Source of the DNA: Nephrocerus scutellatus
Lineage: Eukaryota; Arthropoda; Insecta; Diptera; Pipunculidae
Assembly: GCA_947095585.1 (NCBI GenBank)
Contig: OX352761.1
Location: 65,836,546-65,900,545 of the forward strand
Length of the DNA stretch: 64,000 bases
Direction: 5' to 3'
A model generated the notes under the pieces. The model had not been told where the DNA came from, did no database searches, and saw nothing but the letters and a program-made list of their open reading frames with translations. Made by a program: the position numbers and the translations under genes. This document shows positions 19,881 to 60,559 of the stretch, piece by piece (position 1 is the first letter of the stretch; each line of letters opens with the position of its first letter).

Positions 19881-20003
19881 AAATTCACAAATAATATAAT
19901 AAAATTAATTAAATAATATACAAATGTAAACAAAGCATCCTTAACTAATGTTTTTCTTGTTTTTGTTTTTTTTTTCACCTTCAAAAAAAAAAAAAAAAAG
20001 AAG

Positions 20004-23173: not shown

Positions 23174-23177
23174 AATC

Positions 23178-34964: not shown

Positions 34965-35700
34965 TTTAAAAAAAATCTCCGATGGACAACACTTTTTGTA
35001 AAAATTTTGGAGACCCTGAGCCCTAGGGTCATGGGGCCCAATACAAATTTTGTTCAAAAATTTATTTTTCTTCATGTATATCTCCGAAGAACAACACTTT
35101 TTGTAAAAACTTTGGAGACTTAGGGCCCCGGGGTTGTGGAGCCCCATACAAATTTAAAAAAAAAATTAACCCGATATTCTTCAAATTGTATACACATGTG
35201 TGTCTCCGATGGACAAAACTTTTTGTAAAAGGTTTGGAGTGGACGGGCCCTGAAGCCCGAGTGGTGCCCATATAATTTTTTTGAAAATTTAATTTTTTAA
35301 AAATTAGCCCAATTTTCTTAAAATTTTAAACACATGTGTATCTCCAATGAACATAACTTTTTGTAAAATTCTTGGAGTGAACGGGCTCTGTGGCTCGAGG
35401 GGTGCCCATATAATCTTTTTAAAAATTAACCCGATTGAAATTTTAAACTTATATTTATCTCTGATTGCAACATATTCTATTGAAAAGTGGAAGTGATTGG
35501 CCCCCAAGGTCGGGGGGTCCCATACAATTTTTTTTAAACATGTGTATCCCTGGTGGCAACAGTTTTTGTAAAAATTTTGAAGTGAAGGGGCTCTAATAAT
35601 AATTTAACCTGGTTCAAACTTTGCACACATGTATGTATCTTCTATCAGAGAATTTACATGAAAAATTGTAATTTTTAAAGGTGTTTTTTTTTAAATTTTC
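34965..35700 (-). repeat. T1 tandem-repeat element, copy D (inverse)
   Basis: Six units with TATCTCCGATGGACAACACT-like cores near 34976, 35079, 35202, 35341, 35455 and 35544, GC-rich GGGCCCCGGGG blocks, and closing AGAGAATTTACATGAAAAAT near 35645. All ORFs in it are repeat-encoded. Confidence 0.75.
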
Positions 35701-37350: not shown

Positions 37351-38282
37351 TAACAGTGTTTGCTCGGGTATCGCTCGCCGGTCACCCAGGGTTTGTTTTT
37401 TTATCTTCTTCGTTACAAATTGAAAGTTTTTTTTTTTTTTATTCCCATCCATACTTTTTGTGTTTTATTTTCGGTTTTGGTCGCTAAATTTTGACTACGC
37501 TGGTTTTATACTTAAATCATGCTTACTACATAGGTTCTTATATACATATAATATATGTTCTAACCATTGGTGATAGATAATCTGGGCTGTACGCATTAAG
37601 TGCGGGGAAATCAGAGGGGTGTAATGCATTCTAGGCAAACACGATGTCCTACGATGACAGTATTTGCGGGGGGTGCCGAACGGATGATAGGCGACTTCTG
37701 CTACCAAAAACGTTGCTACTACAAAGGAGGAATAAGTGCTGTGTAACAGCCACTCTATTGACGAGTATATTTGCTAAACCCTAACGCCGTCGGCGAAATG
37801 CTTTAATAGCTTATTCAAATTCAAAATTTCAAAATTCTTCGTTTAGAACGGCGGTCAGCGTTAGCTTTCCAGAAGAGATTTTACAAATTGCAGCAGAGTA
37901 TTCTTTCTGATTTGCTTTGGTTTTTCCCACCATATATCTGTGTCCAGTTATTTCAAACTAGAAGGAATTTTATTTCCCCCAGTTTGAAGTAATAAATTTT
38001 CCATATACCTAATGTATATTGGAAATTAATATTAATATACCATTATTATTATATTATTATTAAATTATTATTATATATAATAGTATTCTTGATAATCGGG
38101 CGAAAAAACCCTCCTAAAAAGTAAATTCATCGGTTCGGTCTTCGGATTCGATCACCGTACCCAATGAATTTCGAGCGAGCACATTTGCTTGGTGCCTACG
38201 CGATGTATGCGTTATATTGGTTAACCGAGCAATATGCATTATCTCTCGGGTAAGTGTCCGGCGCTGGACTTGCTATTTCGCC
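37351..38282. other. Unassigned sequence
   Basis: No gene recognised. 38030-38090 is an (ATTATT)-rich tract. 38097-38282 is GC-richer and ends abruptly where BEL LTR sequence begins. Confidence 0.4.
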
Positions 38283-38432
38283 TTTCGCACAATTGCTATT
38301 TGTGCTGATTGTTACAAAATAGCAATTGCGTGGATGTGGGTCACTGCATGTTGGGTGTGACGATCGATTGTGCAAACGCTGATGATGCATTTGGTTGCCG
38401 ATACGTTGGACTTGATTGCGCACATGCTGTGG
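38283..38432 (-). repeat. BEL 3' LTR, left part (split from 50516-50552)
   Basis: Matches 53989-54136 of the BEL 5' LTR at roughly 90%, including TAGCAATTG.GTGGATGTGGG, GTGACGATCGATTGTGCAAA and GCGCACATGCTGTGG. It stops at the hAT element, and the sequence that should follow (TCGCCTTGTTGTTG) is found 12 kb away at 50524. The left end is truncated at 38283. Confidence 0.8.
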
Positions 38433-39534
38433 TAGAAGTGTGCGGGTAGTAACTATTCGGTATTCAATACCCGTTACATGCAACTACCCGAAGTAACGAT
38501 TACTCTAATGAAATACTTATCGTTACTCATCGTTACTTTATATTCTTTTACGAGTGTATCATGTTTGCATGGTACGAATATTTTGGTTATTGTTTTGTAT
38601 AGAACTATTGATATATTGGAAATTATGCAAGCTGAAGAGAGTAAGTATTACAATAGACGACGATTTTTCTCTCGTTTTCCCGTGCCGTTGTGAAATTGGT
38701 TGGTCAGCAATCGTATATTTACAAAAAAAGAGATAGACTACTGCTAGATTTCTACGAGAAAAACATATCAAAAGTATAGTACACAAGTTCACAGCAGTTC
38801 ACACAGCAGTTGAATGTTAATGTTTGTGTTGCCTGTTTGAGTTTTATTTTCTAAATATAATTATATGCGTTTAGTTTCGAATTATATAAATTCAAGTTGC
38901 CAACAGTTATTGATTTAAAGTTTGTGCCCGTTGCAAACAAGGGAGCTGGTATACCCACGGTTAGCAAGGTTAGCCAAAAAGCACCTTTCAATAGTGGCAA
39001 CTTCTGTGCCTTCGGAGAGAATATTTCAAAAAGTGGGCAAATATTTTCTGATAGGCGTTGTCGTATTAAGTCCAAAAATTTTGAAAAAATCATTTTTTTG
39101 AATGCTAATCAAGATTTTATCTTATAATTTAGTTAAATTTCTTTTTAGCGTTCTTTTTATTCTAGTCTTTGAATTATGTATGAATCGATCGTAGAGTTAA
39201 TTTTTATTTTATATTTATATTTATATTAAAAAATGAATTAATAGATATCGTTTGTTTTTTTCGCATAATAAAAACATATTTTGAAAAATAAATCTTTTTT
39301 CTTAATGAAAGTAAATATATTCCAAAATCAACAGTGGTCTACGAGCCATATATACAAATTCACCAGTAACAATTATATGGTTAGATAGGTAATCGTACTG
39401 TTCCTTCTTCTTGTTAAAAAGTGAATGATTACTTTTAATGTATTTTAATGATTACGAACAAAATGTAACTGGTATTTGCATCAAAAGTAACGGGTACTCG
39501 TGATTACTCAAAGTAACGACATTGCACATCTCTA
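38433..39534 (+). mobile_element. hAT transposon derivative, copy 1 (1102 bp)
   Basis: Ends TAGAAGTGTGC and GCACATCTCTA form imperfect inverted repeats of hAT style. Subterminal GTAACGATTACT/GTTACT words recur on both sides. 39000-39125 encodes SKSGQIFSDRRCRIKSKNFE and KIIFLNAN, the C-terminal dimerisation end of hAT transposases, so this is a deleted derivative. Left flank is TGCTGTGG (38425-38432) and right flank CAACTCAC (39535-39542); they do not match each other but match the opposite flanks of copy 2. Confidence 0.85.
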
Positions 39535-39684
39535 CAACTCACACTGTTCTATATCATTTTCTCTCGTCGTCCTTTCTTGTATTGTCACTGTTCGTCAAAC
39601 GTTCGTGCAATGTTGCATTTTAATAGTTTCTAGTTTTCGGTAAGGTACTGTTTGTCTCGCTAACTTCTCCCATTCCCACATATA
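39535..39684 (-). repeat. Gypsy-type LTR, outer part, plus TSD TATA
   Basis: 39535-39680 matches 46963-47104 of the complete LTR nearly base for base (TTCTCTCGTCGTCCTTTCTT, GTTTCTAGTTTTCGGTAAGG) and ends CCCACA. TATA at 39681-39684 equals TATA at 46824-46827 beyond the other LTR of that element. The inner part of this LTR lies at 49268-49413. Confidence 0.85.
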
Positions 39685-39739
39685 AGTTAATTAAATCACT
39701 ACAAGAATAGTATAAAAAAATTTAAAGGCTGAATGCCTT

Positions 39740-39990
39740 TTGCTTTATTCAATGATTATTCTTCTTATTGATTAACAAAAATTCAATAACTTATATTTAT
39801 ACCCTAATTCAGCTTTTTTGTCGTTCGCTATCGTGAGAACGATTTGTTTATTCTGATGTGTGCTCGATGCGCCAGACGCTTGGTCAGCATTTCCGTTCTA
39901 TTTGGTGTTCGTGCATGCAGGTGTCGTTCACACCGTCTGCTGGTGTTAAGTCTTCCCCTCTTAAATGCGATTGTCCTCAATCGCTAATAA
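39740..39990 (+). repeat. Copia LTR/leader fragment
   Basis: 39765-39957 matches the reverse complement of 60350-60545 and 63540-63745 (CTAATTCAGCTTTTTTGTCG, GATGTGTGCTCGATGCGCCA, GCAGGTGTCGTTCACACCGT). Plus-orientation here; no gag follows. T1 copy E begins right after it. Confidence 0.65.
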
Positions 39991-40004
39991 AAACAACCCA
40001 TAAA

Positions 40005-40492
40005 AATTAAAATTTTTCTTGTAAATTCTCTAATCGGGGATACACACACACACACACTGCGTGCTCGTTTTGTGGCAAAATCATTCACCAAATGACGCAG
40101 CGGCAGCGAACAGCGCTGCTCACAAAGCACAGAGCTCAGACTTTGCCGTGATCTGATGCGATATAGCGATATTTAAAAATTGTATATTGGGGTCCCCAAG
40201 GGGCCGATCTCTCCAAATTTTTACAAAAAGTGTTTTCCATCGAAGACACACATGTGTACAAAATTTAAAGAAAATCGAGTAAATTTTGTAAAATATTTGT
40301 ATGGGAGCCTCCCGACCCCGCGGCCCGAGGGGCCTCAAATTTTAATAGAAAGTGTTGTCTTAGGAGATATACATGTGTGCAAAATTTCAATAAAATCGGG
40401 CTGTAGGAAGTGGGTTAAAAATTGATCACAAGATTTGGCCAGCCAGCCAGCCAGCCAGCCACGGGCAAGTGAAGTTAATATAGAGAATTTAA
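40005..40492 (+). repeat. T1 tandem-repeat element, copy E
   Basis: Complete-looking small copy: AACAACCCATAAAAATTAAA at the left, two units with CATCGAAGACACACATGTGT-type cores, a CCAGCCAGCCAGCCAGCCAG tract at 40441-40460, and CACGGGCAAGTGAAGTTAAT then ATAGAGAATTTAA at the right. (CA)n at 40042-40056 is inside. Confidence 0.75.
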
Positions 40493-40497
40493 AAATA

Positions 40498-41500
40498 TGG
40501 GGCACGATGGTTGGTGTAGCTATTTCTGGTTCGTGGTGTTCTTCGCGGATCTTTTCTTCAGGGATTTGGATGGTGACCTTGGTACTATTTCTTTTAGGAT
40601 GAGACTTGCAGATTACGGCTATTGTGGCTAATATTCCGAAGCAGGAGATGAGGCAGTAGGTGGTTACTTGATGTATATCGTTCTCTGTTTGTAGCAATCG
40701 GAGTTTGTTTGTGTTGTTAATGTAAAGGTCTTTCATCATCTCTAGCGTTAGTTGCTCTCTGTCCTCCTTTTCTCTAGGGCTTGGTTGTAGTACTGCCGGT
40801 AATGCTTTTACCATTGATGCTTATCTGGAAATGAACGATCTTCCATTGACGGTTACGGTGGTGTTGTGGAATTTTATTAGGAATGTGCCAATGAGGGTGT
40901 GGGTAGTGTTTCCAAATTGTATGATTCCGATAAACTGGTTTAGTAATAGAACGCCTGTTGAGATTTCATCTATTGTTGGTATATGCTGACTGTTGACGGT
41001 GTTGCATGAAGCTGATAGACTATTAAGCAAGCTAGGAATACATGTTTCTTATATCTATAATGTCTTTAGAATTACAAATTGATAAGGAGTTATAATTTTT
41101 CATTTTTGTGTTGTTCCATACATTTCTTCATTGTATCTTAGGATTACATTAAATAAAATTTCTGGTACAATATTGTTCCTTTTTATTGGTTTGATTGGAA
41201 GACTGTCATAGGTTTCGTTTGCGGTTAATCGAATATTTATGATATAGAGTAAAGCTGAGCTATTGCTTATAACTTTTATCTGTGAGAATGTCTGTAGCAA
41301 GTTTTATTTCGTTTTTTGATAAAATAAATGAATTTATCATACCTAACTTAGCCCAATGAATGGCATAATTGATATTTTCTAATTCTTCTTTAACTAGTTT
41401 AATTTTATATTGAATGTTCGTTATGATTTCAAAATTTAGTGTATTGTCTTCTTTTATTAATTTTTGTATCTCGTTTTGAACTCTAGTGATATTATTCATT
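40498..41500 (-). pseudogene. env: Second gypsy remnant: env C-terminal part
   Basis: Minus strand: MNNITRVQNEIQKLIKEDN (41499-41440) starts a helical region, then INYAIHWAKLGMINSFILSK; after frame breaks, HIPTIDEISTGVLLLN, LIGTFLIKFHNTTVTVNG (40920-40850) and an anchor QVTTYCLISCFGILATIAVI (40665-40605) with a basic tail. This is the transmembrane half of an errantivirus-type Env with at least three frame breaks. It is cut at the left by T1 copy E and interrupted at 41500 by the RTE insertion; the N-terminal half is at 43540-43960. Confidence 0.75.
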
Positions 41501-43539
41501 GGCGGTCAGCCATCAGCAGAAATAGGGGGAATAACACAGAATGCTCTAGAATTGCATGTGGCCGTAACTATCTCTGACTGGTGGAAGTGCGATCAAACCT
41601 CCACGTGGTGGCCGCTGGTAATTTTCCTCCAATGCAGGAAAAGCTGAATGATCGGGCTAGTCCCTTCAAAGTAAGGTTGGCGCGAGGCCAATAACCTCGC
41701 CTGTAAAAAATTATTATTACGGAACCCAAAATCAGCCTCGGATACACTGATGAACGACGACGACCACGGCAACGAATGGTGTCTTACAAAAATCAGAATA
41801 TAACATATATTACAGCCGTCATGCAAGACATCATGTGCTCGGGATGGGGTTTCTAGTCAGCAAAAGAATGAAACCCACCGTTATCGGCTTTAATGCAGTA
41901 AATGAACGGCTATGCAGCCTTCGCGTGCGGGGCAAATTTAAAAACATAAGCCTCATAAACGTTCACGCACCTACAGAAGATTCCCCAGATGGAGCCACTT
42001 GCAACCAGATAGACCAAGTACTGATAGACCGCCGCTACAATCCGAACCTGATGACGGTACGAACATACCGAGGTGCCAACTTCGACTCGGACCACTATCT
42101 TGTTGGTATGGTGCTCCGAACGCGGATTGCATCATCACGGAAGACTGCATCCGCGAATAAGACTCGAGTCAACACGGCTGCCCTTCGCAATGAAGAGACC
42201 AGAAACAACTACATTAAAGCGATAGGACTCGCCCTAAAGTAAGTCCTGGGGCTGAGATGTCGGGCGTAGAAGAGAAATGTACACGCCTTAAGAATACTGT
42301 CATTATTACTGCTGACTCCATCTTAGGCAGTAGTCATAGAGATCAAAACGACTGGTTCGATGACGAATGTAAGCTAGCGACTGAACGTAAGAATGCTGCG
42401 TACCGATCAATGCAACAATCTCATAGAACGCGGGCATGCGAAGATGAATATAAAGAGCTCAGAAGATATGAAAAAACAGTTCACCGGCGAAAGAAAGCAG
42501 CCTAGGAGAAGAATCTCGTCCGTGAACTGGAACAGTACAGAGAGCAAGGACCGCACCAAGCGCGGAAGTTCTACCAAAGGGTCCGCGGTATGACGCAATA
42601 TACACCGCGTTGCACATACTGCAAGGACAAAGAGGGTAATCTGATCGCCGATCTTAAAGGCATCTTAGAGCGATGGGAAGAGCACTTTCATGAGTTGCTA
42701 AATGGCCAGCTAACTGAGGAATTGAAGGCTCCACCAATGACCGAAGATCATACTATGCTGCCGCCACCAAGCATAGTCGAAGTTAGAAGACCGATAAATC
42801 GGCTCATAAATAATAAGGCCCCGGGATCTGATGGGATCCCAGCGGAACTGATAAAAATAGGAGGCCCCACATTACACCAAGCAATTCATGAAATAATAGT
42901 GCAAGTATGGGAAGAAGAAGTTATGCCAGAAGACTGGCGAAGAGGCATCCTGTGCCCCATAATAAGAAGGGAGATATCACAAAATGCAGCAATTATCGTG
43001 GTATAACGTTGTTGAGTACCGCGTAAAAAATTTTCTCCTCTATCCTTCAAGACAGGATAGCCCCATCATTTGTTCAGTGTGGCTTCATCCCAGCCAAATC
43101 AACAACTGATCAGATTTACACCCTATGTTAGATGATGGAAAAATGTCTAGAGTTTCAAAACACACTACACCATCTTTTTATTGACTTTAAGGCCGCCTAT
43201 GGTAGCATACCCAGAGTAGAAATGCCATGAGAGATTTCGGCATCCCAAATAAACTGACACGACTATGTAGGTTGACCATGACCAATGTTATAAGCCAAGT
43301 AAAAATATCCGGATCACTATCAAGCCTATTCAACATCTATAACGGTCTCCGACAAGGGGATGGACCGACAGCGAGGCCGGCCAAGCCTACACTGGAAGGA
43401 TGGCGTAGACCAGGACGCCCAGAGTTTAGGGATGCCAAACTGGATGACATCGGCTCTAAATCGGGACCGGTGGAGAGCCTTTTTGCGGGAGGCCAGGACC
43501 GGATCCCGGTTGTAGAGCCAAATATGATGAAGCTGATGA
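41501..43539 (+). mobile_element. RTE non-LTR retrotransposon inserted in env (14-bp TSD)
   Basis: Flanked by TGATATTATTCATT at 41487-41500 and 43540-43553. From 41501 there is a 5' untranslated region, then endonuclease pieces (GFLVSKRMKPTVIGFNAVNE, INVHAPTED, DQVLIDRR, DSDHYLVG), linker, and the first half of reverse transcriptase (INRLINNKAPGSDGIPAELI, YRGITLLS, IDFKAAYGS, YNGLRQGD at 43345). It then jumps to the 3' end at 43365 with an AT-rich ATGATG tail. The YADD half of RT is deleted. At least six frame breaks or stops. 42257-43006 shows the best open pieces. Confidence 0.85.
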
Positions 43540-43960
43540 TGATATTATTCATTCTTTCATTGTATAATTGGTTTATTATAAATAACAACAGATTTCTTAA
43601 AACATCTGCAATTTTTTCTTTGATGGTGACGAAGTCATCATGGTCTGGATTGCCAGCCATCCATTTCCACGCACTTCCAATGAATTTTAATGAACGTTTT
43701 GTAATACGCGGTCTCAAGTTACGCAAAAGATTTCGAATTGGTTTCAGCTCATGTGATAGCAAAGGGAATATTGTATGGTTATGAGTTGATTGAAGATCAA
43801 GGATTGGGGTTATTCCGGATATAAATTGGTCGTACTGTCCTAGGTCGATGACGTGTATAAGTTTGAAGTTTCCGTCTTGTATTTTCATCTGTCCTATGTG
43901 AAAGGTTATTATTTGAAAAGTCCAAAATTTGGACTGTAGCTTGGCAGGTGTAAAAGGCAC
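43540..43960 (-). pseudogene. env: Second gypsy remnant: env N-terminal part
   Basis: Open on the minus strand from 43960: FTPAKLQSKFWTFQI, KLIHVIDLGQYDQFI, a basic R-I-T-K-R site that resembles the Env cleavage motif, then a glycine-containing hydrophobic stretch with AWKWMAGNPDHDD, and a helix up to the RTE target site at 43553. The open frame that continues into 43337 is RTE sequence read backwards. Equivalent to 13140-13287 of the other gypsy. Confidence 0.75.
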
Positions 43961-43969
43961 ATCTGAAAA

Positions 43970-45168
43970 GAAATGGGTTATTTTCTAATGTTACTCTTGT
44001 GAATTGTTCTTCCAGATTCGGTTATTATTGTAGAGTTTTTATTCTCTTTAACTATTTCCTGTCGATATCTGCCTGTTAATTTTGAATCTATTCGTTTATT
44101 ATTTTTTACGTAAATAACTTGTCCTATCTGATAGTCTTTGTTGAGTTTCCTTTTTTTGTTATGATATTTGTTGTCTTTTTCCTGTTTGATTTTAAGTTTT
44201 TCTACATTAGTTAACCGTGTTTTTTCGAATTGTTAAGGGATTCGTCCGTAAAATAGTTCAATGGGTTTCTTTCCTGTGGTTGAATGGATAGTGAAGTTAT
44301 ACTCGTTGACAGCCCGTTCTAGGAGTTCTTCAAATGACCGTGAAAGTCCGTCAGATTTCAGGCATCTCATAATTTCCGACAAAGTGAAGTGAAACGGAGT
44401 TTTGAAGATTCTGACTTGAAGGTCGTCTTCCATCATTGAGGTTATAGATGCTGAATTTAACGCTTTTTCGTTGTCTGTAACGACAACTTCAGGTACGCAA
44501 AAGAAGAATAGAATATCTCTTAGTGGACGTCTAATGTCTTCGATAGAACGTGATGAGATAATTTTAGCCTGAGCGAATTTCGTGAATTTGTCGACAGCTG
44601 TTAAAACGATTTGTTTTTCTGTGGAAAAGATATCAACGTGAAGGGTATGTCCTGGATAATTGGGGATGGGTGTAGGATTCAGTTGTGGCTTGTTGGGATG
44701 TCTGTGGTATTTATTTACCTTACAAGTTGCACAGCGGCTTACTATTGCTTTGATTTTCGAAGACATTTTAGGGAAATATAAATTATCTAATAGCGGGATT
44801 CGGTTTTCTTCAGCATTGCGATGAGCTCTTCGGTGTGTCTTTATGATTTTTTCCTCTTGCTTAATTTCGTAAGGTAGATCTTCTACAAGTTTTTGTGGGA
44901 ATCTAATACGGTAGTCTTTAAAATGGAGCGGATAAATTTCCTGAATTTTTCCCATAGTTTCTTCATGTGTTAAAAGACCGTTGATAGTGTTAGGGTTCAA
45001 ATATCTTTTGATTATGTTAATTAGATCAATTTCTGTGTATTCTGGTTTGATAAGGATGTGTCTAGTGTAATTTTCAAATGGATTTTTAATTTGGTAGCTG
45101 TCTTCTTCTTCAATTTTTAGTACTAATTGGGGCTGCCTGTCAATTGCTTGTGGCAATTTCATTAGCAT
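43970..45168 (-). pseudogene. pol: Second gypsy remnant: integrase
   Basis: The ORF 45168-44233 (311 codons) contains the zinc-binding HRRAHRNAEEN..CATCKVNKYH, the catalytic-core pieces LHVDIFSTEKQ and VVVTDNEKALNS, and AVNEYNFTIHSTTGKKPIEL. From 44230 to 43970 the C-terminal region continues in another frame with DYQIGQVIYVKNNK. The third catalytic residue region is degenerate (FTLSEIMRCLKSDG in place of the usual HPNGNGQ-E). RT and RNase H are missing to the right, where a hairpin MITE begins at 45201. An integrase of gypsy type, followed by env in the normal order. Confidence 0.8.
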
Positions 45169-45200
45169 ATTTGTGTTGTAATTGTTACAGTCGTTTAATT

Positions 45201-45411
45201 ATTAAACCATTTAAAGTTCAATGCAAACTTTTTCGCAAACAAACGAAACCTTTTCCCCTCCATTGAAAAAAAAATTTAGTTTCTTTTGATTTTGAAAAAG
45301 TTTCTTTTAATTTGGAAAAAGTTTTGTTTGGTTTGGAAAAAGTATTATTTGTTTTGGAAAAGGTTTCGTTTGTTTTCGAAAAAGTTTGCATTGAACTTTA
45401 AATGGTTTAAT
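45201..45411. mobile_element. Hairpin MITE (211 bp)
   Basis: ATTAAACCATTTAAAGTTCA at the left is the inverse of TGAACTTTAAATGGTTTAAT at the right; about 55 bp pair at each end. The centre repeats GAAAAAGTTTCTTTT-like words four times. No coding. Located between the integrase remnant and unassigned sequence. Confidence 0.75.
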
Positions 45412-45589
45412 TTGAAGTTGAAATCCTATATTACAAGCATATGAAGAACTGGTTACGCACTCACAATGCTTTACAGCTGAACTAAACTCAAAAGAAAGAA
45501 TTTTAGTGGTACTTCGTACGTCGTTGTGTGTACGTCGCAGCGACCGTGCGCTGTGGCTGCTATGTTTTCACCACCAAATGGGGAATTTC
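45412..45589. other. Short unassigned spacer
   Basis: No motif identified on either strand; may be further degraded gypsy pol. Confidence 0.3.
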
Positions 45590-46720
45590 ACCACAAAATC
45601 GAATCTCCGATCAGAGAACTTACAAGAAAAATTTCAATTTTTAAATTCGCTTGCCCGTGGCACGTCTGTCTGTCGGTCGGACTGTTTGTCGTGGAGTCTT
45701 GCGATACATTTTTAACCCACTTTCAAAAGCTCGATTTTATTGAAATTTTGTACACATGTGTATTTCCTGAGACAAAACTTTATTCTTTCTATTAAAATTT
45801 GGGACCGAGGGGTGCTAATATAAAATTTTTAAAAAATAACCCGATTTTCTTTAAATTGTATACACCCCAGGGTCATGGGGCCCCAAATTTTTTTTTAAAA
45901 AACATAACCCGATTTTCTTCAAATTTTATACACGTGTGTATCTCCGATGGGCAACAATTTTTGTAAAAAATTTGAAACCCCAGGGTCATGGTACCCCAAA
46001 ATTTTTTTAAGAAAATTAACCCGAATTTTTTCAAATTTTATACACGTGTGTATCTCCGATGGACAACACTTTTTGTAAAAGTTTTGGAGACCCCGTGCCC
46101 CGGGGTCGTGGACCCCATACAAATTTAAAAAAAAAAATTAACCCGACTTTCCTCAAATTTTAAATACGGCTGTAACTCCGCTGGACAAAAATTTTTGTAA
46201 ATATTTTGGGGACCCCGGGCCCCGGGGTCGTGTGGTCCCATACAAATTTTAAAAAAAATGTACCCTACTTTCTTTAAATTTTATGTATATCCGATGGACA
46301 ACAATAAGTGTAAAAATTTTACATACGCGGGCGCGGTCGTGGGGCCTCAAAATTTACAAATTTAAAATAAAAATTTACCCGATTTTGGTAAAATGGACAA
46401 AACTTTTTGGACTTTTTTGAACGAATGGGCCTGAGGCCCGAGGGGTGCCCGAATAATTTTTTTTAAAAATTAGCCCGATTTTCTTCAAATTTTAAACATT
46501 GTTTATCCCGATGGACAAAAGTTTTGTAAAATTTTTGGCGCGAATGGGTCCTGAGGCCTGGGTGCGGCGCCATAAATTTTTCTTTTAAAAGCAGCCCGAT
46601 TTACTTTTAATTTTAAACATATGTGTATCTCCGATAGACCGAACTTTTTGTAAACATTTTTGAGTTTTTGATTTGAATTTTTTTCCCATACAAATTTTAA
46701 CATTTACTTATTTATTTTGA
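45590..46720 (-). repeat. T1 tandem-repeat element, copy F (inverse, longest)
   Basis: Begins with the left terminus in inverse form (TCAGAGAACTTACAAGAAAA) and a GCCCGTGGCACGTCTGTCTG right-type end, then eight to nine units with GTATCTCCGATGGACAACAC cores (for example 45940, 46053, 46172, 46505, 46627) and GGGGTCGTGGACCCCATACA blocks. Confidence 0.75.
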
Positions 46721-47239
46721 CCTTTCTTGCTTTTGTTTGCGTTTCTGTTCTTTGAGAATGGAGAATTTTTTAAGACACAATATTATACAATTTGAAGATA
46801 ATATAGATTTTAAATGCGATGATTATATGTAGTAAATTTTATAAACGAAATTAAATTTAAAAACGATATGTATTCATTTATTACAAAGAAACATTTAATA
46901 AAATTAAATTCTTGGCCCGTAGGTCGTAGAACGTCCTTCTTGTACATTTGTTCGTCGTCAACTCACACTGTTCTATATCATTTTCTCTCGTCGTGCTTTC
47001 TTGTATTGTCACTGTTCGTCAAACGTTCGTACAATGTTGCATTTTAATAGTTTCTAGTTTTCCGTAAGGTACTGTTTGTCTCGCTAACTTCGCCCATTCC
47101 CACATCCGGCCATCCTGTAACAGCATTCGCCTCGAATGGTGTAATCCATCTTTTTATGTGCTCTGCCACAGTATAACTTGGCAGAAGTCCTTCTTCCATG
47201 CCAACTCTTTTAACGTAGTAGCGGCCGTATTTTAGCTTC

Positions 47240-48302
47240 TTTCAGCTTTTAACTTTCATCTTTAACTTCTTTAATTTTTTCATCCTTACTTCTTTGAATT
47301 TCATCTTTAACTTCTATAATTTTTTCATCCTTTATTTCTTTCAAAATTATCTTCTTTACATTTCAGATAGTACGACAACGAGCTCTTCATATGTTTTTAC
47401 GGACCGGTACATTCAAAAGATCTATGTCCAAACTGCTGACATTTAAAACATTTGTAGCCAGAATTTTTGAATTCACTTGCAATGTGGCTCATCTCGCCGC
47501 ATTTAAAACATTTCTTTTCATTGTCTTTCCTAGCGTCCTGACCATTTGCAAAAGACTTGGTTGTCCACGCCAGCGTTTTGATAAAGTTTGCAGAATGGTG
47601 CTTGCCATCTCGAATTTTTTCTTAGATCGTTATTTGAGTCTTAAGCTCGTCTATTGATTTATTTTGGTACAAGTTACTTTTGCTCGTTTCATTATCAGGC
47701 ACACCGTCAATAAAATACTCCAAAATACTCTGTTCGTCAAGGTTCACTGGCTTAGCGAGCTCCATCTGTGAGTACAGATATTCTCTGAGAGTTTCATTGA
47801 ATTTTTGCGTCGATTTCTTAACATTCTATGAACCTCTACAGCTGACATCTGAGTTCCGCATTCCTTAATAAGTTCTTGTTTTAAAGTTTTCCAATTGTGG
47901 ACTCCAACTTAGCTACGAATGTACATCCTGGCTGCACCCTTGAGTAGCTGTTTTCCGTAAATGAATTTTTGCAACTCGTTCCATTTAACGGACAACGCGT
48001 TCGCTTCGAATTCTTCTAGCCATTGTTCAACACGGGGATGACCGGATGCAGAAAATGACGTTATTGCATCTTTGATATCCCGTAGCGTAAATGTTGATCT
48101 TTGGGAAAAAATTTCGTGAACTGGAAACTGTTGAGGCGACGTCTTCAAATTCTGACTCATCTTCGCTACTGTGGACTAAACCGAAATGAGTCATTAATCT
48201 GTCTTGTAATGTTACCTTCCGTCCAGTTGTAGTCAAGCCCAAGCCACCTAAGCGTTCTTTCAGATCTTTTACTGACAGTCCTAAAATTGTCTGTTTGTCC
48301 AT
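47240..48302 (-). pseudogene. gag: Gypsy-type gag with SAP-like N-terminus
   Basis: ATG at 48302 starts MDKQTILGLSVKDLKERLGG followed by LGLTTTGRKVTLQDRL, a helix-extended-loop-helix SAP-like motif. After a frameshift near 48120 the Gag core continues (HPRVEQWLEEFEANAL, WNELQKFIYGKQLLKGAARM, to 47909), and further on in broken frames are Cys/His clusters at 47440-47540 that resemble two zinc knuckles. 47240-47340 encodes a Lys/Glu-rich repeat (KEVKDE-type). The nucleic-acid-binding roles are those of the family; the frame breaks are seen. Confidence 0.7.
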
Positions 48303-49267
48303 GGTAAAGTAATTGGTTTTACAGTATTAATTATTAAATGATAAAATATGTATCTTAAAATATTCAAAAACAAAAATCTTTAACATAAAATTAAACGAAT
48401 GGATTAATATTTAGATAATCAAAATAATTAAATTTATTTAAATATTATTCAAATGCAAACTAAGATTATTTAAGTTCCAATTGATTTCCAAAATATCCAA
48501 ACAGTTTGATGTTGACTGGTGGTGGACGATGACAATACAGCAGCTTACAGCAACACGAACAGCAGCAACAATAGCATAAACGGTGATGACGACAGCAACA
48601 TAATCCAAACATTTATACAGGCACATTTATTTGCGTTAATGTTAGAGTGACGACTGTTTTACTTTTTGTATGTGTTACAAAAAACGTATAGTTTAGCTCA
48701 ATAATTCTCACATGCATCAACGGTGATGACGACAGTATAGCAGTACTGTACAAAGTATGAAAGGAAAGATGTAGCGAACTGCTATTCTTTTCCACTCTAA
48801 AATTATGGCATTGTACTTTCTTAGGAATTTCGTTCTAATTCTCTAATCTAACACACATGTAGCAAGTGTAAAAAAATGTCATTCGACGATGACAATGGTT
48901 AATGGATCCCGTTTAAAAAAAACGTCGCATTTCGCTTATGAAACCATTTTTTCTTGATTTTTACAATAATATATAGTTACGTTTCATACAAACATAAATT
49001 TTCACACTTGTTAACATTTCTTGTAAAACTTTTGAGTTGAACGGCACATTTCGCTTACAAAAAAAAACCATTTTTGTTCAAATTTTTGTTGTTTTCACAA
49101 AATGAACTCCGTTCGAGAAAAAATTCTCAAATTTTGATTTTTCTTGAAAAACTACGCACTTGCTTGTTGGCGAATGGTTTGGCTTTTTTTTCTTTCAATT
49201 TATAAACCATTTACGTTTTTTTTTATTTGAACGCACAGTTTTTATGAATCTTGGTTGGGCCCCCAAA
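48303..49267 (-). other. Leader of the small gypsy-type element
   Basis: On the minus strand the LTR end ACTACA is followed by TTTGGGGGCCCAACCAAGAT, where TGGGGGCCCAACC is at the primer-site position. The rest of the ~960-bp leader is AT-rich with a doubled GGTGATGACGACAG (48580 and 48722) and no gene. Confidence 0.5.
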
Positions 49268-49413
49268 TGTAGTAAATTTTATAAACGAAATTAAATTTAA
49301 AAACGATATGTATTCATTTATTACAAAGAAACATTTATTAAAATTAAATTCTCGGCCCGTAAGTCGTAGAACGTCCTTCTTGTTCATTTGTTCGTCGTCA
49401 AGAGTCAACTCAC

Positions 49414-50515
49414 TAGAAGTGTGCGGGTAGTAACTATTCGGTATTCAATACCCGTTACATGCAACTACCCGAAGTAACGATTACTCTAATGAAATACTTA
49501 TCGTTACTAATCGTTACTTTATATTCTTTTACGAGTGTATCATGTTTGCATGGTACGAATATTTTGGTTATTGTTTTGTGTAGAACTATTGATATATTGG
49601 AAATTATGCAAGGTGAAGAGAGTAAGTATTACAATAGACGACGATTTTTCTCTCGTTTTCCCATGCCGTTGTGAAATTGGTTGGTCAGCAATCGTATATT
49701 TACAAAAAAAGAGATAGACTACTGCTAGATTTCTACGAGAAAAACATATCAAAAGTATAGTACACAAGTTCACAGCAGTTCACACAGCAGTTGTATGTTA
49801 ATGTTTGTGTTGCCTGTTTGACTTTTATTTTCTAAATATAATTATATGCGTTTAGTTTCGAACTATATAAATTCAAGTTGCCAACAGTTATTGATTTAAA
49901 GTTTGTGCCCGTTGCAAACAAGGGAGCTGGTATACCCACGGTTAGCAAGGTTAGCCAAAAAGCACCTTTCAATAGTGGCAACTTCTGTGCCTTCGGAGAG
50001 AATATTTCAAAAAGTGGGCAAATATTTTCTGATAGGCGTTGTCGTATTAAGTCCAAAATTTTTAAAAAAATCATTTTTTTGAATGCTAATTAAGATTTTA
50101 TCTTATAATTTAGTTAAATTTCTTTTTAGCGTTCTTTTAATTCTAGTCTTTGAATTATGTATGAATCGATCGTAGAGTTAATTTTTATTTTATATTTATA
50201 TTTATATTAAAAAATGAATTAATAGATATCGTTTGTTTTTTTCGCATAATAAAAACATATTTTGAAAAATAAATCTTTTTTCTTAATGAAAGTAAATATA
50301 TTCCAAAATAAACAGTGGTCTACGAGCCATATATACAAATTCACCAGTAACAATTATATGGTTAGATAGGTAATCGTACTGTTCTCTCTTCTTGTTAAAA
50401 AGTGAATGATTACTTTTAATTTATTTTAATGATTACGAACAAAATGTAACTGGTATTTGCATCAAAAGTAACGGGTACTCGTGATTACTCAAAGTAACGA
50501 CATTGCACATCTCTA
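49414..50515 (+). mobile_element. hAT transposon derivative, copy 2 (1102 bp)
   Basis: Same length and orientation as copy 1, with roughly twenty substitutions. Left flank CAACTCAC (49406-49413) and right flank TGCTGTGG (50516-50523). The C-terminal transposase remnant is at 49985-50093 (SKSGQIFSDRRCRIKSK). Confidence 0.85.
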
Positions 50516-50589
50516 TGCTGTGGTCGCCTTGTTGTTGTTAATATATTCAACATTTTGCCTCCTTCTGTTTTCCAGTTGATTTCAAATCT

Positions 50590-53676: not shown

Positions 53677-54159
53677 TTGCCTTTAGTAATTCAAAACTTA
53701 GTAACTCAAAACTTTTTTAAAAAAACTTTAATATTTTCAGGCATATCCGTCTCGAAGGAGCATGTAAATTCTTTCTTTAGGAATTTAAAACTGGACAACC
53801 ACCTTACCATTGGGGATAGTTGTCGGTTTTTTTGTAAGAAAACTGTTTATTTGATTTGCTAAACTGACTCAACATGCTCCTTTATTTGCTCTCTATTTAT
53901 ACCATAAATTGACTTCATTTAAACTTGCTAAAAAAGCATATCCAACAAATATTGGAAATGCTTACTAATTTAATCTTAATGCTAATGCAATTGCTATTTG
54001 TGCTGGTTGTTACAAAATAGCAATTGAGTGGATGTGGGTAACTGGGTGTTGGGTGTGACGATCGATTGTGCAAACGCTGATGTTGCATGTTGTTGCCGAG
54101 ACGTTTAACTTAATTGCGCACATGCTGTGGTCGCCTTGTTGTTGGTGATACATTCAACA
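53677..54159 (-). repeat. BEL 5' LTR and leader
   Basis: On the minus strand the LTR begins TGTTGAATGTATCACC at 54159, has TATAAATAG at 53901-53893 and an AATAAAGGAGCATG just after. Its inner end is near 53815, with TGGTAAGGTGG at the primer-site position. It carries TGCTGTGG once (54127-54134), an unoccupied version of the hAT target in the 3' LTR. Confidence 0.7.
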
Positions 54160-54379
54160 GCCCGCAAGGGTTTTGTCAATGTGCTATGATATTCCAATTG
54201 TGCTGCTGGTTTAACTGGTAGTTTCTTATACCGACATTTCGCCTGAAAGTCTGCAAGGGTTTTGTGAATATGCTATGATATTCAAATTGTGTTGCAGGTT
54301 TAACTGGTATTTTCTTATGTAAGGCGAAATCCTAATTTTATTAGATATAGGGTTTGTGACGCAGTCGATTATTATTCGA
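54160..54379 (+). repeat. ~90-bp direct repeat
   Basis: GCAAGGGTTTTGTCAATGTG..GGTTTAACTGGTAGTTTCTTA at 54163 is repeated at about 54251 with few changes. No gene. Confidence 0.55.
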
Positions 54380-56480
54380 CTTTGTTACAATGCGCAGGAT
54401 GCTATTGCGTATGTGCGGCACTACGGACGGTCAGTTTTGTTCACATACAATACGAAATGGCCTAAAATTGCCAGGAAAAACTTCCGGTGATCGCCACGAC
54501 ATCACCGCACCTGAGTTCAAACAAAAATTCAGGACCTTAATGGCTTTCATCGCTAAGCAGATGGTTTTCAGACAGCCACGTTGTTGGATGTACTCAATAG
54601 AGTAGCAGAAGCATGGATTACCACATGCTGTAGTTAATTGAGAAAATCAGACCAGATCAAATCGATGCATCAGCACCGAGAAACCAGATCCAGGAGCCGA
54701 CTCGGAGTTTTTCCTGGTAGTCGCAACAAACATCATGGCCCGTGCGGAGGATTTCTTCGAAATTTGCAAAAGCGATCCGTTCGCACGAACATTGCTTTAC
54801 TGAGAAATGCCACGCTGTTATACATGGAACCAAAGAAGTTTCAACGACGAAAAAAAGGTCAACCTGTTACAGGATATGTCGATGTGTACTCGACTGATGT
54901 GCTGGGCCGTGTGTACATCGTACAATAGATGTTGTGTTGTGCACCACTTACCGAGAGGCTTACCACGTCTGAATTAGCTGAAAAACGACTCACATTGGGA
55001 CTCAACACTTGCCGATGCCACTGTTTTTCCGCTGGAAAATCAAATTCGTACATTGTTCGCGACCATCATAGCGTGTCATCCATCAAATGCATTGGAATTG
55101 TGGAACAAATACAAGGACGAGATGGCTGACGACATTTTGCATCGAGTTCACACTGCAACATCGTATTATGAGCTTGAAATAAACGACGGAGACGTATGCG
55201 TGCTTACGTGCGGCAGCTGTTTGTCGAAATTGGGTAGGGCAGCACTAATTCCTTCGATGCACGATGCATTTAATAGTGCAACAAGAGCAAGTGTACGATC
55301 GAGATTCAAGGAGCCAAATAGTACGAACGAATGTCCTGCTTTTGAATGCACAGCAAAATAACGTGTACGACGAATTGATGAAGGCAGTGGACGAAGGAAA
55401 CCGTGGAATATTGTTCCACGATGCTCCCGGTGGTACAGGCAAAACCTTTCTGATTTCATTGCTTTTGGCCACAATTCGCACGAGACCTCACAAACGATCA
55501 TTGAAAGCGTTCAATCGAACGATGAAGGATTTACGAACAGACTTAAGACGTTTTGGCGGACTATGATTATGCTGGCCGGAGATTTTCATCAAACGCTACC
55601 TGTCATTCCGAGATCGACAGCTGCAGATGAACTTAATGCATATCTGAAATCGTCGATTTTGTGGCGCTATGTGAAGAAGTTGCAGTTTACCACGAATATG
55701 GGAGTCACGTTACAGAACGACTCATCAACTGCTGATTTTTTCAAACAACTGTTGGCAATGGTCAAATACCTGTTGATGTTTCGACCGGATTAATTTCGTT
55801 TCCCTCAAATGTTTGCATGTTCACGACGTCGAAAGAAGAGCATATCGCCAAAGTGTTTTCGAACATCCGCCGAAATTATATGAATCAGGATTGGCTCAGC
55901 GAACGAGCGATTTTGGCAGCAAAGAACAATGAAGTAGACAGTCGGAATGACTTGATTCACAACCAAAGTGCTGGGGAATCAATCCATCCCTTGACTGTGT
56001 GACCATTCAAGACGAGGCAACCAAATATCCGACCGAGTTTTTGAATGCGGTTGATTTGTCGGGAATACCACCGCATAACTTGATGCTCAAGGTCGGATCT
56101 GTGATAATCATGCTGCGCAATCTGAACAATCCAAGATTTTGTAACGGATTGCAATTGGCTGTGAAGAAACTGATGAACAACGTGATTCAAGCAACGATCA
56201 TAAAGGGCAAATTCAAAGGAGAGGATGTTCTAATTCCGAGAATTCTTCTAATTTCAACTGATATTTCGTTCGACTTCAATCGTTTGAAGTTCGCTATGAC
56301 TATTAACAAACGTAAGGTCAATAGTTCTTAGTGTGCGGAATAAATCTGGAATTTCCGTGTTTTTCTCATTGTCAGTTGTACGTCGCGTGTTCGAGAGTTG
56401 GCCAAACATCATCGTTGTTTATTTATGCGCCAAAGAACAAAACGAAAAATATTGTTAACGACAATGCATTGTATTGATTT
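54380..56480 (+). pseudogene. Helitron RepHel remnant, unit 1
   Basis: Broken plus-strand frames in RepHel order: DAIAYVRHYGRS (54397), SGDRHDITAPEFKQKF and PRCWMYSIE (54485-54600), a stop, then KHGLPHAVVN where the Rep HUH motif should give two histidines. Next come KKGQPVTGYVDVYSTDVLGR, HPSNALELWNKYKDEMADDI (55080), the helicase Walker A in DAPGGTGKTFLISLLLATIR (55420-55480), AGDFHQTLPVIPRSTAADEL (55572), NYMNQDWLSERAILAAKNNE and RLKFAMTINK, and in another frame FSHCQLYVACSRVGQ. Sequence between Walker A and the AGDF block is deleted, and the Rep tyrosines are missing. A transposition enzyme in origin, now dead. Confidence 0.85.
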
Positions 56481-57310
56481 GCGTCTGCATTCGACTTAAT
56501 TCTACTCGAAAAAAATACATTGAATTCTTTTCAATTCCAACTGACTCCAATTCATTTCCACACTAAGAGAAAAAATCCAAAAAAACAACTCAATTTTCGA
56601 TAGATGCCTGAGTTTGCATCGACATTTCATTCACTTTTCAATACATTAGTGTTGAATTCGATGAAAAAGTGAATGGAATGTCCACTCAACTCAAGCGTCT
56701 ATTGAGAATTGAGCTGAGTTGTTTGATTTTTTCTCTCATCAAAATCAATTTTCCTAAAGGACAAAAGTATTTGCTCGAAGTAATTTGGGGAGGAACGAGG
56801 TTCGCCGGGTCAACTAGTTCAGTCTAAAGACTCAATTATATTAAAAGCCTAATAGTATGTAACGTTAAATGTAGGTCTTTCATTCATAAGCGATAGGTCT
56901 TTCAGTCATAAGCAATTTCTGAAATAGACCGAAAAAACCACATTTAACTTTGCAAACCACTAGGCTTAAAAAAATCGATAGCGATGCCTTAGATTTAGTA
57001 TTTTTTCTCAGTTTTCTCAGGGGTAGTAACCTCTATGAATGAAAAAATTACGCCATCGCAAGCCGAGCGCTAACCAATTGTTTTAAAACAAGTCCCATCA
57101 AATTTTGACTGGAAGAAGCCAAGATATACGACACGGCAAACTGACCCATGTATAAACGTACAAATGTACTAACAAACGTACAAATGTTAACACGCTCGCT
57201 AAAAAAAAATTTCATGATCTTTGAATATAAGCTTTGCCCTTCGGGCTTGCAATTATTGCCCGTAACTTTGATCTTTGATCTTTTTATAACATGTTCAGTT
57301 AATGCAGCAA
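54448..57310 (+). repeat. Tandem duplication unit 1 (2863 bp)
   Basis: Period is exactly 2863 bp to unit 2. Contains the Helitron remnant, the Helitron 3' terminus GAACGAGGTTCGCCGGGTCA..CTAG ending at 56817, and 490 bp of flank to GTTAATGCAG. A single difference from unit 2 was noticed (C at 57146, A at 60009). 56480-57310 has no gene; an IR-like TCCAAAAAAACAACTCAATT..GAGCTGAGTTGTTTGATTTT pair lies at 56577-56735. Confidence 0.9.
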
Positions 57311-60173
57311 CAATACGAAATGGCCTAAAATTGCCAGGAAAAACTTCCGGTGATCGCCACGACATCACCGCACCTGAGTTCAAACAAAAATTCAGGACCT
57401 TAATGGCTTTCATCGCTAAGCAGATGGTTTTCAGACAGCCACGTTGTTGGATGTACTCAATAGAGTAGCAGAAGCATGGATTACCACATGCTGTAGTTAA
57501 TTGAGAAAATCAGACCAGATCAAATCGATGCATCAGCACCGAGAAACCAGATCCAGGAGCCGACTCGGAGTTTTTCCTGGTAGTCGCAACAAACATCATG
57601 GCCCGTGCGGAGGATTTCTTCGAAATTTGCAAAAGCGATCCGTTCGCACGAACATTGCTTTACTGAGAAATGCCACGCTGTTATACATGGAACCAAAGAA
57701 GTTTCAACGACGAAAAAAAGGTCAACCTGTTACAGGATATGTCGATGTGTACTCGACTGATGTGCTGGGCCGTGTGTACATCGTACAATAGATGTTGTGT
57801 TGTGCACCACTTACCGAGAGGCTTACCACGTCTGAATTAGCTGAAAAACGACTCACATTGGGACTCAACACTTGCCGATGCCACTGTTTTTCCGCTGGAA
57901 AATCAAATTCGTACATTGTTCGCGACCATCATAGCGTGTCATCCATCAAATGCATTGGAATTGTGGAACAAATACAAGGACGAGATGGCTGACGACATTT
58001 TGCATCGAGTTCACACTGCAACATCGTATTATGAGCTTGAAATAAACGACGGAGACGTATGCGTGCTTACGTGCGGCAGCTGTTTGTCGAAATTGGGTAG
58101 GGCAGCACTAATTCCTTCGATGCACGATGCATTTAATAGTGCAACAAGAGCAAGTGTACGATCGAGATTCAAGGAGCCAAATAGTACGAACGAATGTCCT
58201 GCTTTTGAATGCACAGCAAAATAACGTGTACGACGAATTGATGAAGGCAGTGGACGAAGGAAACCGTGGAATATTGTTCCACGATGCTCCCGGTGGTACA
58301 GGCAAAACCTTTCTGATTTCATTGCTTTTGGCCACAATTCGCACGAGACCTCACAAACGATCATTGAAAGCGTTCAATCGAACGATGAAGGATTTACGAA
58401 CAGACTTAAGACGTTTTGGCGGACTATGATTATGCTGGCCGGAGATTTTCATCAAACGCTACCTGTCATTCCGAGATCGACAGCTGCAGATGAACTTAAT
58501 GCATATCTGAAATCGTCGATTTTGTGGCGCTATGTGAAGAAGTTGCAGTTTACCACGAATATGGGAGTCACGTTACAGAACGACTCATCAACTGCTGATT
58601 TTTTCAAACAACTGTTGGCAATGGTCAAATACCTGTTGATGTTTCGACCGGATTAATTTCGTTTCCCTCAAATGTTTGCATGTTCACGACGTCGAAAGAA
58701 GAGCATATCGCCAAAGTGTTTTCGAACATCCGCCGAAATTATATGAATCAGGATTGGCTCAGCGAACGAGCGATTTTGGCAGCAAAGAACAATGAAGTAG
58801 ACAGTCGGAATGACTTGATTCACAACCAAAGTGCTGGGGAATCAATCCATCCCTTGACTGTGTGACCATTCAAGACGAGGCAACCAAATATCCGACCGAG
58901 TTTTTGAATGCGGTTGATTTGTCGGGAATACCACCGCATAACTTGATGCTCAAGGTCGGATCTGTGATAATCATGCTGCGCAATCTGAACAATCCAAGAT
59001 TTTGTAACGGATTGCAATTGGCTGTGAAGAAACTGATGAACAACGTGATTCAAGCAACGATCATAAAGGGCAAATTCAAAGGAGAGGATGTTCTAATTCC
59101 GAGAATTCTTCTAATTTCAACTGATATTTCGTTCGACTTCAATCGTTTGAAGTTCGCTATGACTATTAACAAACGTAAGGTCAATAGTTCTTAGTGTGCG
59201 GAATAAATCTGGAATTTCCGTGTTTTTCTCATTGTCAGTTGTACGTCGCGTGTTCGAGAGTTGGCCAAACATCATCGTTGTTTATTTATGCGCCAAAGAA
59301 CAAAACGAAAAATATTGTTAACGACAATGCATTGTATTGATTTGCGTCTGCATTCGACTTAATTCTACTCGAAAAAAATACATTGAATTCTTTTCAATTC
59401 CAACTGACTCCAATTCATTTCCACACTAAGAGAAAAAATCCAAAAAAACAACTCAATTTTCGATAGATGCCTGAGTTTGCATCGACATTTCATTCACTTT
59501 TCAATACATTAGTGTTGAATTCGATGAAAAAGTGAATGGAATGTCCACTCAACTCAAGCGTCTATTGAGAATTGAGCTGAGTTGTTTGATTTTTTCTCTC
59601 ATCAAAATCAATTTTCCTAAAGGACAAAAGTATTTGCTCGAAGTAATTTGGGGAGGAACGAGGTTCGCCGGGTCAACTAGTTCAGTCTAAAGACTCAATT
59701 ATATTAAAAGCCTAATAGTATGTAACGTTAAATGTAGGTCTTTCATTCATAAGCGATAGGTCTTTCAGTCATAAGCAATTTCTGAAATAGACCGAAAAAA
59801 CCACATTTAACTTTGCAAACCACTAGGCTTAAAAAAATCGATAGCGATGCCTTAGATTTAGTATTTTTTCTCAGTTTTCTCAGGGGTAGTAACCTCTATG
59901 AATGAAAAAATTACGCCATCGCAAGCCGAGCGCTAACCAATTGTTTTAAAACAAGTCCCATCAAATTTTGACTGGAAGAAGCCAAGATATACGACACGGC
60001 AAACTGACACATGTATAAACGTACAAATGTACTAACAAACGTACAAATGTTAACACGCTCGCTAAAAAAAAATTTCATGATCTTTGAATATAAGCTTTGC
60101 CCTTCGGGCTTGCAATTATTGCCCGTAACTTTGATCTTTGATCTTTTTATAACATGTTCAGTTAATGCAGCAA
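57311..60173 (+). repeat. Tandem duplication unit 2 (2863 bp)
   Basis: Starts CAATACGAAATGGCC directly after GTTAATGCAGCAA; CAA is shared at both junctions, so the break has microhomology. The Helitron remnant is repeated with the same stops and frame changes (57351-59340), and the terminus CTAG ends at 59680. No independent gene. Confidence 0.9.
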
Positions 60174-60559
60174 CTTAATTTTTTTATTCAATGAAACAAA
60201 CTGTTCTGTAGTTGGAAAAATCATCTGTAAATATTACTTCGTACTTCGCACCATTGATTGAAAACGTCTGCATTGGTCCACATAGGTATTTATTATTTCT
60301 CCAGGTTTTGAAGCTTTACTTTCACTCATTTTAAACAGTAATGTTTGATGTTTACTTATTATATAACTTAACACCAGCAGACAGTGTGAACGACACCTGC
60401 ATGCACGAACACCAAATAGAACGGATATGCTGACCAAGCGTCTGGCGCATCGAGCACACATCAGAATAAACAAATCGTTCTCACGATAGCGAACGACAAA
60501 AAAGCTGAATTAGGGAATTAGTGTATAAATATAAGTTATTGAATTTTTGTTAGTCAATA
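60174..60559 (-). pseudogene. Copia element: LTR, gag start fused to integrase
   Basis: On the minus strand LTR-like sequence (60545-60345) leads to ATG 60329 and about ten Gag codons (MSESKASKPG). After that the sequence jumps to CGPMQTFSINGAKYEVIFTD and DFSNYRTVCFIE (60290-60195), the opening of the Ty1/copia integrase core, then to a stop. The intervening gag, protease and integrase zinc domain are deleted. The same fusion occurs at 63361-63755. Confidence 0.7.

What the first reader, a model, noticed from the sequence alone, without database searches (positions are those of the whole stretch)
38425..50523. Composite of two hAT elements with swapped target duplications encloses a circularly permuted 9.9-kb segment
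Copy 1 (38433-39534) has TGCTGTGG on its left and CAACTCAC on its right. Copy 2 (49414-50515) has CAACTCAC on its left and TGCTGTGG on its right. Both are 1102 bp and in the same orientation. The outer pair lies in a BEL LTR whose unoccupied form is present at 54127-54134. The inner pair lies in a gypsy-type LTR whose unoccupied form is at 46963-46970. That gypsy element's own TSD (TATA) is at 46824-46827 and 39681-39684, so before the event 49413 and 39535 were joined through one hAT. The enclosed DNA is therefore circularly permuted. Either a DNA circle carrying one hAT recombined into a resident hAT, or a hAT-DNA-hAT macrotransposon from a tandemly duplicated locus jumped into the BEL LTR. 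This would be a natural route for mobilising 10 kb of unrelated DNA.
Basis: seen in the sequence. Interest (0 to 1): 0.88.

Follow-up and report, generated by a model that had tools for sequence, protein, structure and literature searches.

The report
Transposon pair carrying permuted DNA cargo
Two near-identical copies of one jumping gene bracket 9.9 kb of other DNA whose two ends match the two sides of a single position in an older element, so the cargo is likely out of its original order, probably because the jumping gene used ends from two sister copies when it jumped and dragged its neighbourhood along.

Summary
Two 1,102-bp hAT copies (38433-39534, 49414-50515; same orientation, 15 mismatches) carry swapped 8-bp flanks: TGCTGTGG outside, CAACTCAC inside. 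Element identity is supported by Pfam Dimer_Tnp_hAT above its cut-off in both copies. The inner flanks are the two sides of one gypsy-LTR position, so one hAT insertion there probably preceded the event. Alternative transposition, as in maize Ac Composite Insertions (PMC4270019, passages and discussion read), gives the same anatomy from one donor hAT and an empty BEL LTR: transposon, flanks in switched order, transposon, 8-bp duplication outside. I rank it first, at modest confidence. The decisive tests (other hAT copies, donor locus, BEL site in relatives) need the genome, which genome search never reached (17 requests unanswered). Verdict: a real, well-preserved, new variant of a known kind in a repeat-rich, probably insect, sequence; mechanism unproven.

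The parts
38425..38432 (+). outer 8-bp target duplication TGCTGTGG, left copy
38433..39534 (+). hAT copy 1, non-autonomous, 1102 bp
   Evidence: PF05699 E=1.2e-06 in window:38919-39098; imperfect terminal inverted repeat, 9 of 13 bases
39535..39542 (+). inner 8-bp target duplication CAACTCAC, beside copy 1
39535..39680 (-). one part of the split gypsy-type LTR
   Evidence: 97.3% to 46959-47105 over 147 bp
39681..39684 (+). TATA flanking the split gypsy LTR
39685..46823 (.). rest of the cargo: nested transposon debris (integrase/env-like fragment of a second gypsy-type element on the - strand, an inserted repeat 41501-43539 with 14-bp duplication, minisatellite-like repeats)
46824..46827 (+). 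TATA flanking the intact gypsy LTR
46828..47104 (-). intact LTR of the gypsy-type element; unoccupied hAT site CAACTCAC at 46959-46966
47105..49267 (-). internal part of the gypsy-type element: gag pieces (SAP domain, CCHC zinc knuckles); no match to any of 120 pol proteins
   Evidence: PF02037 E=4.9e-08; PF00098 E=4.9e-10
49268..49413 (-). other part of the split gypsy LTR, ending in CAACTCAC
   Evidence: 97.0% to 46827-46961 over 135 bp
49406..49413 (+). inner 8-bp target duplication CAACTCAC, beside copy 2
49414..50515 (+). hAT copy 2, non-autonomous, 1102 bp
   Evidence: PF05699 E=1.5e-06 in window:49900-50079
50516..50523 (+). outer 8-bp target duplication TGCTGTGG, right copy
38294..38432 (-). 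left part of the split BEL-type LTR
50516..50552 (-). right part of the split BEL-type LTR
53992..54159 (-). intact BEL-type LTR; unoccupied hAT site TGCTGTGG at 54123-54130

Best explanation
Two same-oriented 1,102-bp hAT copies with swapped 8-bp flanks enclose 9,879 bp whose two ends match the two sides of one position in a gypsy-type LTR, and this composite was likely made in one alternative-transposition event that put a hAT and its copied flanks into a BEL-type LTR. Shown: the swapped flanks, both unoccupied sites, the shared orientation and the hAT identity. Inferred: (1) a single hAT sat in the gypsy LTR between left flank X (ending ...46823-gypsy-49413) and right flank Y (39535-gypsy end-39685...). 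(2) During replication a transposase supplied in trans paired the left end of the hAT on one sister chromatid with the right end of the hAT on the other. (3) These ends inserted into the BEL LTR, making the outer TGCTGTGG duplication. (4) Replication ran on through hAT into Y from one side and through hAT into X from the other, then stopped, and the broken ends of Y and X were fused. The result reads BEL-hAT-Y><X-hAT-BEL, which is the observed order, with the inner CAACTCAC pair left over from the older insertion. If a single fusion point exists it probably lies in 39685 to about 40500 or about 45198 to 46823, since the block between looks like one element split only by a later insertion.
For: Anatomy of flanks and empty sites. 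Same layout as maize Composite Insertions: outer 8-bp duplication, transposon termini at the borders, former flanks switched and fused inside; three published lengths are 14,287, 19,341 and 23,647 bp, re-replicated arms 4,781-18,866 bp, with one larger uncharacterised allele (PMC4270019); here 12,083 bp. Needs one donor hAT and an empty BEL LTR, fewer prior states than the rivals. Order of ages fits: the hAT pair (15/1102) differs less than the gypsy LTR pair (8/277), as required if the hAT was doubled after the gypsy insertion, though not significantly (Fisher p = 0.11). Use of ends from sister chromatids is described as hybrid element insertion and, for Ac, sister chromatid transposition (passages of PMC2775673 and PMC3744419); for inversions, exchanged duplications are stated to result also from hybrid element insertion when both copies sit at one site. 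The block 40500-45198 looks continuous: its inserted repeat has a 14-bp duplication, 41487-41500 and 43540-43553.
Against: The two hATs would have been identical at birth; all 15 differences must then be later mutations, and this could not be tested without other copies. No fusion point was identified. The element is non-autonomous and no transposase source was found (nor sought beyond the window). Every feature tested here is equally expected from a circle recombining with a resident hAT. In the papers I saw, Composite Insertions are documented for maize Ac/Ds, and from two elements, not from one site. The BEL element's missing outer duplication is unexplained under this reading.
Confidence: 0.4

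Rival explanations
1. A circle of 10,981 bp carrying one hAT (in the gypsy LTR) integrated by homologous recombination into a resident hAT in the BEL LTR.
For: Predicts exactly the swapped duplications and a circularly permuted cargo. Segmental duplications through circles with switched block order are reported in humans (PMC7450558, abstract and section list read). Exchanged duplications with chimeric copies are the reported outcome of ectopic recombination for Galileo in Drosophila (PMC2775673).
Against: Needs two independent hAT insertions, a circle and a crossover; no circle junction or second lineage of hAT was seen, but neither could be looked for outside the window. Mismatches are evenly spread, which neither supports nor excludes a crossover.
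Confidence: 0.3
2. A tandem duplication of the gypsy-hAT region gave hAT-cargo-hAT, and the outer ends of that unit jumped as a 12-kb macrotransposon into the BEL LTR.
For: Same flanks predicted; macrotransposition by closely linked direct-orientation transposons is reported in maize (Huang and Dooner 2008, seen only as a reference in PMC3744419 and PMC9910405; the paper itself is not held). The window does hold a recent tandem duplication elsewhere (54447-60174).
Against: No tandem copy of the 10,981-bp unit in the window; two separate events required.
Confidence: 0.14
3. Assembly join: a separate BEL-hAT-BEL locus and a circle or tandem array were threaded together at the hAT copies.
For: The order is the path that an assembly graph with one collapsed hAT node would give (inference); no reads were available.
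Against: The hAT copies are kept apart by 15 differences; the window has no N and resolves a 2,865-bp tandem repeat at 99.97% identity, which points to long reads. It would still imply a circle or array.
Confidence: 0.08
4. A break in a resident BEL hAT was repaired by both ends copying from a hAT in a gypsy LTR and then joining (two-sided synthesis-dependent repair).
For: Gives the same flanks and one fusion point inside the cargo (inference from the anatomy).
Against: No positive evidence; needs hATs at both sites.
Confidence: 0.05

Closest known systems
Composite Insertions from alternative transposition of maize Ac/fAc (hAT) (PMC4270019)
   Same: hAT termini at both borders, 8-bp duplication of a new target outside, former flanks in switched order fused inside, size of order 10-20 kb
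   Different: Here both inner flanks are the two sides of one insertion site, so one donor element; the host is probably an animal; not observed de novo; no fusion point found
Hybrid element insertion / sister chromatid transposition (P element, recalled; Ac)
   Same: Ends from sister copies of one element insert at a new site; for inversions this is stated to give exchanged duplications
   Different: Outcomes named in the passages read are inversions, deletions, inverted duplications and chromatid bridges or breaks, not a two-hAT insertion
Galileo inversion breakpoints in Drosophila buzzatii (PMC2775673)
   Same: Two copies with exchanged target duplications
   Different: Opposite orientation and an inversion; there the copies were shown chimeric, here that test could not be run
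Ds macrotransposon
   Same: Two same-oriented hATs with cargo between and an 8-bp duplication outside
   Different: A macrotransposon does not by itself put the two sides of one insertion site at opposite ends of its cargo
hobo/Hermes episomes (PMC2803484, abstract read)
   Same: Circular hAT DNA in insects that can reintegrate
   Different: 86% of the episomes with two intact ends held 1-1000 bp between the ends, not 9.9 kb; integration of such a circle would be expected to leave one element, not two (inference)

Membership tests
hAT superfamily transposon | 8-bp target site duplication | tested here: met
   Both 8-bp pairs, each with one unoccupied copy in the sister LTR
hAT superfamily transposon | short terminal inverted repeats | tested here: met
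   TAGAAGTGTGC.../TAGAGATGTGC..., 9 of the first 13 bases; imperfect
hAT superfamily transposon | transposase of the family | tested here: inconclusive
   Only the C-terminal dimerisation remnant, frameshifted: PF05699 28.6 and 28.3 bits, cut-off 21.4; a second frame of copy 1 is below cut-off, 13.5 bits. No complete transposase ORF in the element
Composite Insertion (alternative transposition) | two hAT termini bordering an insert, 8-bp duplication outside | tested here: met
Composite Insertion (alternative transposition) | inside, the former flanks of the donor element in switched order | tested here: met
   The two sides of one gypsy LTR position lie at opposite ends of the cargo; the donor locus itself was not seen
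Composite Insertion (alternative transposition) | a new fusion junction between the flanks | not tested
   No donor locus: the genome search unanswered 17 times; the bounds 39685-40500 or 45198-46823 are inferred
Composite Insertion (alternative transposition) | target site empty before the event | not tested
   Only the sister LTR (54123-54130) is known empty; no relatives reached
Ectopic recombination between two hATs (with a circle) | both copies chimeric | not tested
   Needs other copies; only two in the window
Macrotransposon from a tandem duplication | tandem copy of the 10,981-bp unit at a donor site | tested here: inconclusive
   None in the window; genome not reached

The most novel reading that the evidence does not exclude
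A single non-autonomous hAT in an animal genome can, by pairing ends of its two sister copies during replication, pick up and re-replicate about 10 kb of whatever flanks it and deposit this elsewhere as a bordered, permuted and possibly again mobile unit: a natural animal counterpart of the maize Composite Insertion, needing only one element.
Probability: 0.35. Interest if true: 0.72.

Novelty: new variant of a known kind. Interest (0 to 1): 0.52.

Why it matters
If the composite insertion reading is right, one hAT suffices to copy, permute and move about 10 kb of neighbouring DNA in what is probably an insect, so dispersed segmental duplications bordered by DNA transposons could be recognised by a simple signature: swapped target duplications plus switched flanks. 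If the circle reading is right instead, dispersed hATs act as docking sites for circular DNA. Either way the locus gives a clear test between the two, by comparing other hAT copies and the BEL site in relatives.

Tried and rejected
Two independent simple insertions: rejected, each would carry the same 8 bp on both its own sides; 0 of 2 do. Inversion or deletion by recombination of direct repeats on one chromosome: does not give this order (reasoning). A crossover point from the two copies alone: 15 mismatches evenly spread, nothing to read. Finding the pre-gypsy target (46823-TATA-39685) elsewhere in the window: 0 matches with up to 3 mismatches. More hAT copies: none in the window; no exact match of a 27-base and a 26-base stretch in viral contigs and prokaryote genome contigs, as one would expect, and records of the window's own genome may be left out there. 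Host name: a pol protein search listed 120 of 5,855 hits, at most 63% identical; nine of the 120 carry an organism name, eight insects and one frog; host left unnamed. Rfam at gathering thresholds: 0 matches. Reversed-ends transposition within an older composite already in the BEL LTR would also permute the cargo; kept only as a sub-variant since it needs a prior composite.

Full report
Observation. Their flanking 8-mers are swapped: TGCTGTGG-copy 1-CAACTCAC and CAACTCAC-copy 2-TGCTGTGG. Three further places in the window hold one of them in either orientation (51219, 19481, 23199). Random 8-mers of this window coincide with probability 4.8e-5, so both pairs at preset junctions have a chance of about 2.3e-9.

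Identity of the parts. The hAT label rests on 8-bp duplications, imperfect terminal repeats (9 of 13 bases) and a C-terminal dimerisation remnant, PF05699, 28.6 and 28.3 bits against a cut-off of 21.4; the continuation in another frame scores below cut-off (13.5 bits). The element is non-autonomous: no long ORF lies in it. The gypsy-type element (46828-49413 plus 39535-39680, minus strand) shows gag pieces with SAP and CCHC domains, and none of 120 pol proteins matches its interior. Its split LTR differs from the intact one at 8 of 277 sites plus a 7-nt indel, and BLAST gives 97.0% and 97.3% for the two halves, as expected if 39535-39680 completes the LTR at 49268-49413. When I aligned the halves apart, the left half scored 10 of 143 with 3 gaps and the right half 4 of 142 with 4 gaps; I read the excess on the left as misplacement of the indel near the cut end. 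The BEL-type element (minus strand; DUF1759) has LTRs differing at 15 of 168 sites and no matching 5-bp outer duplication. That is a result against a simple nested history of the outer locus, and I cannot explain it.

What the anatomy says. The two sides of one gypsy-LTR position are at opposite ends of the cargo, each followed outwards by a hAT and then by the two sides of one BEL-LTR position. So before the event 49413 and 39535 were most probably joined through one hAT (inference). The gypsy TATA pair agrees with this, but weakly, because this class of element often targets TATA (recalled).

How it arose. Four routes give these flanks: composite insertion by alternative transposition; a circle recombining into a resident hAT; a macrotransposon from a tandem duplication; two-sided repair copying. 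An assembly join is a fifth. I rank composite insertion first since it needs one donor hAT and an empty target, and matches a documented hAT behaviour: in maize, Ac termini excised from replicated DNA insert into an unreplicated site, replication runs into the flanks, aborts, and the ends fuse, leaving former flanks in switched order between transposon termini with an 8-bp duplication outside (PMC4270019; passages, discussion). Three lengths given there are 14,287, 19,341 and 23,647 bp; here it is 12,083 bp. In the maize work two elements took part; here both inner flanks come from one site, so the ends would have come from sister copies, as in hybrid element insertion or sister chromatid transposition. 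Delprat and colleagues state the key contrast for inversions: exchanged duplications arise either way, but the copies are identical after hybrid element insertion and chimeric after ectopic recombination (PMC2775673 section 10, part 1 of 2). That test needs other copies.

Ages. Pairwise differences are 1.4% for the hATs, 2.9% for the gypsy LTRs and 8.9% for the BEL LTRs. hAT below gypsy is required under composite insertion or macrotransposition and holds in sign, but p = 0.11. Gypsy below BEL is p = 0.007.

Where a fusion could lie. The middle of the cargo is a minus-strand fragment of another gypsy-type element: integrase in 44236-45198 (PF17921 and PF00665, both below cut-off) and an env-like end in 40338-40820 (PF07253, below cut-off), interrupted by an inserted repeat with a 14-bp duplication. 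Of 120 pol proteins, 46 match here, all within 43975-45054 and none in 45198-46823. Minisatellite-like similarity takes over below about 40500. So this block looks old and continuous, and a single fusion would probably lie in 39685 to about 40500 or about 45198 to 46823 (inference).

Assembly. The window has no N and resolves two 2,865-bp tandem copies at 99.97% identity, so a long-read assembly is likely (inference) and a misjoin across a 1.1-kb repeat with 15 differences is unlikely but not excluded.

Hence no donor locus, no other hAT copies, no relatives. The ranking of mechanisms is a judgement from parsimony and precedent.

Noticed in passing
54447-60174: Tandem duplication of a 2,865-bp unit at 99.97% identity with a PIF1-type helicase ORF (Helitron-like, label recalled), and parts of a third copy at 98-99% up to 63545.
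   Followed up: no
13288-23175: LTR retroelement with reverse transcriptase/RNase H and a Baculo_F envelope ORF of 603 aa; LTRs 96.5% alike, apparent 4-bp flank AATC.
   Followed up: partly
49390-49413: The split gypsy LTR has 7 extra bases ten bases from the hAT border that the intact LTR lacks; could be an old footprint.
   Followed up: no
926-1452, 26571-26836, 34975-35459, 40172-40453, 45865-46664, 60608-61094: A roughly 100-140-bp minisatellite-like repeat dispersed in both orientations inside and outside the cargo.
   Followed up: partly
48030-48326: SAP domain at the start of a retroelement gag (PF02037, 32.9 bits, cut-off 23.9).
   Followed up: no
38282-38293 and 54160-54171: BEL element without matching outer duplication, so its two ends may stem from different copies or one flank was altered.
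   Followed up: partly
45201-45411: 211-bp imperfect palindrome (72%) just beyond the end of the integrase ORF of the inner gypsy-type fragment (45198).
   Followed up: no
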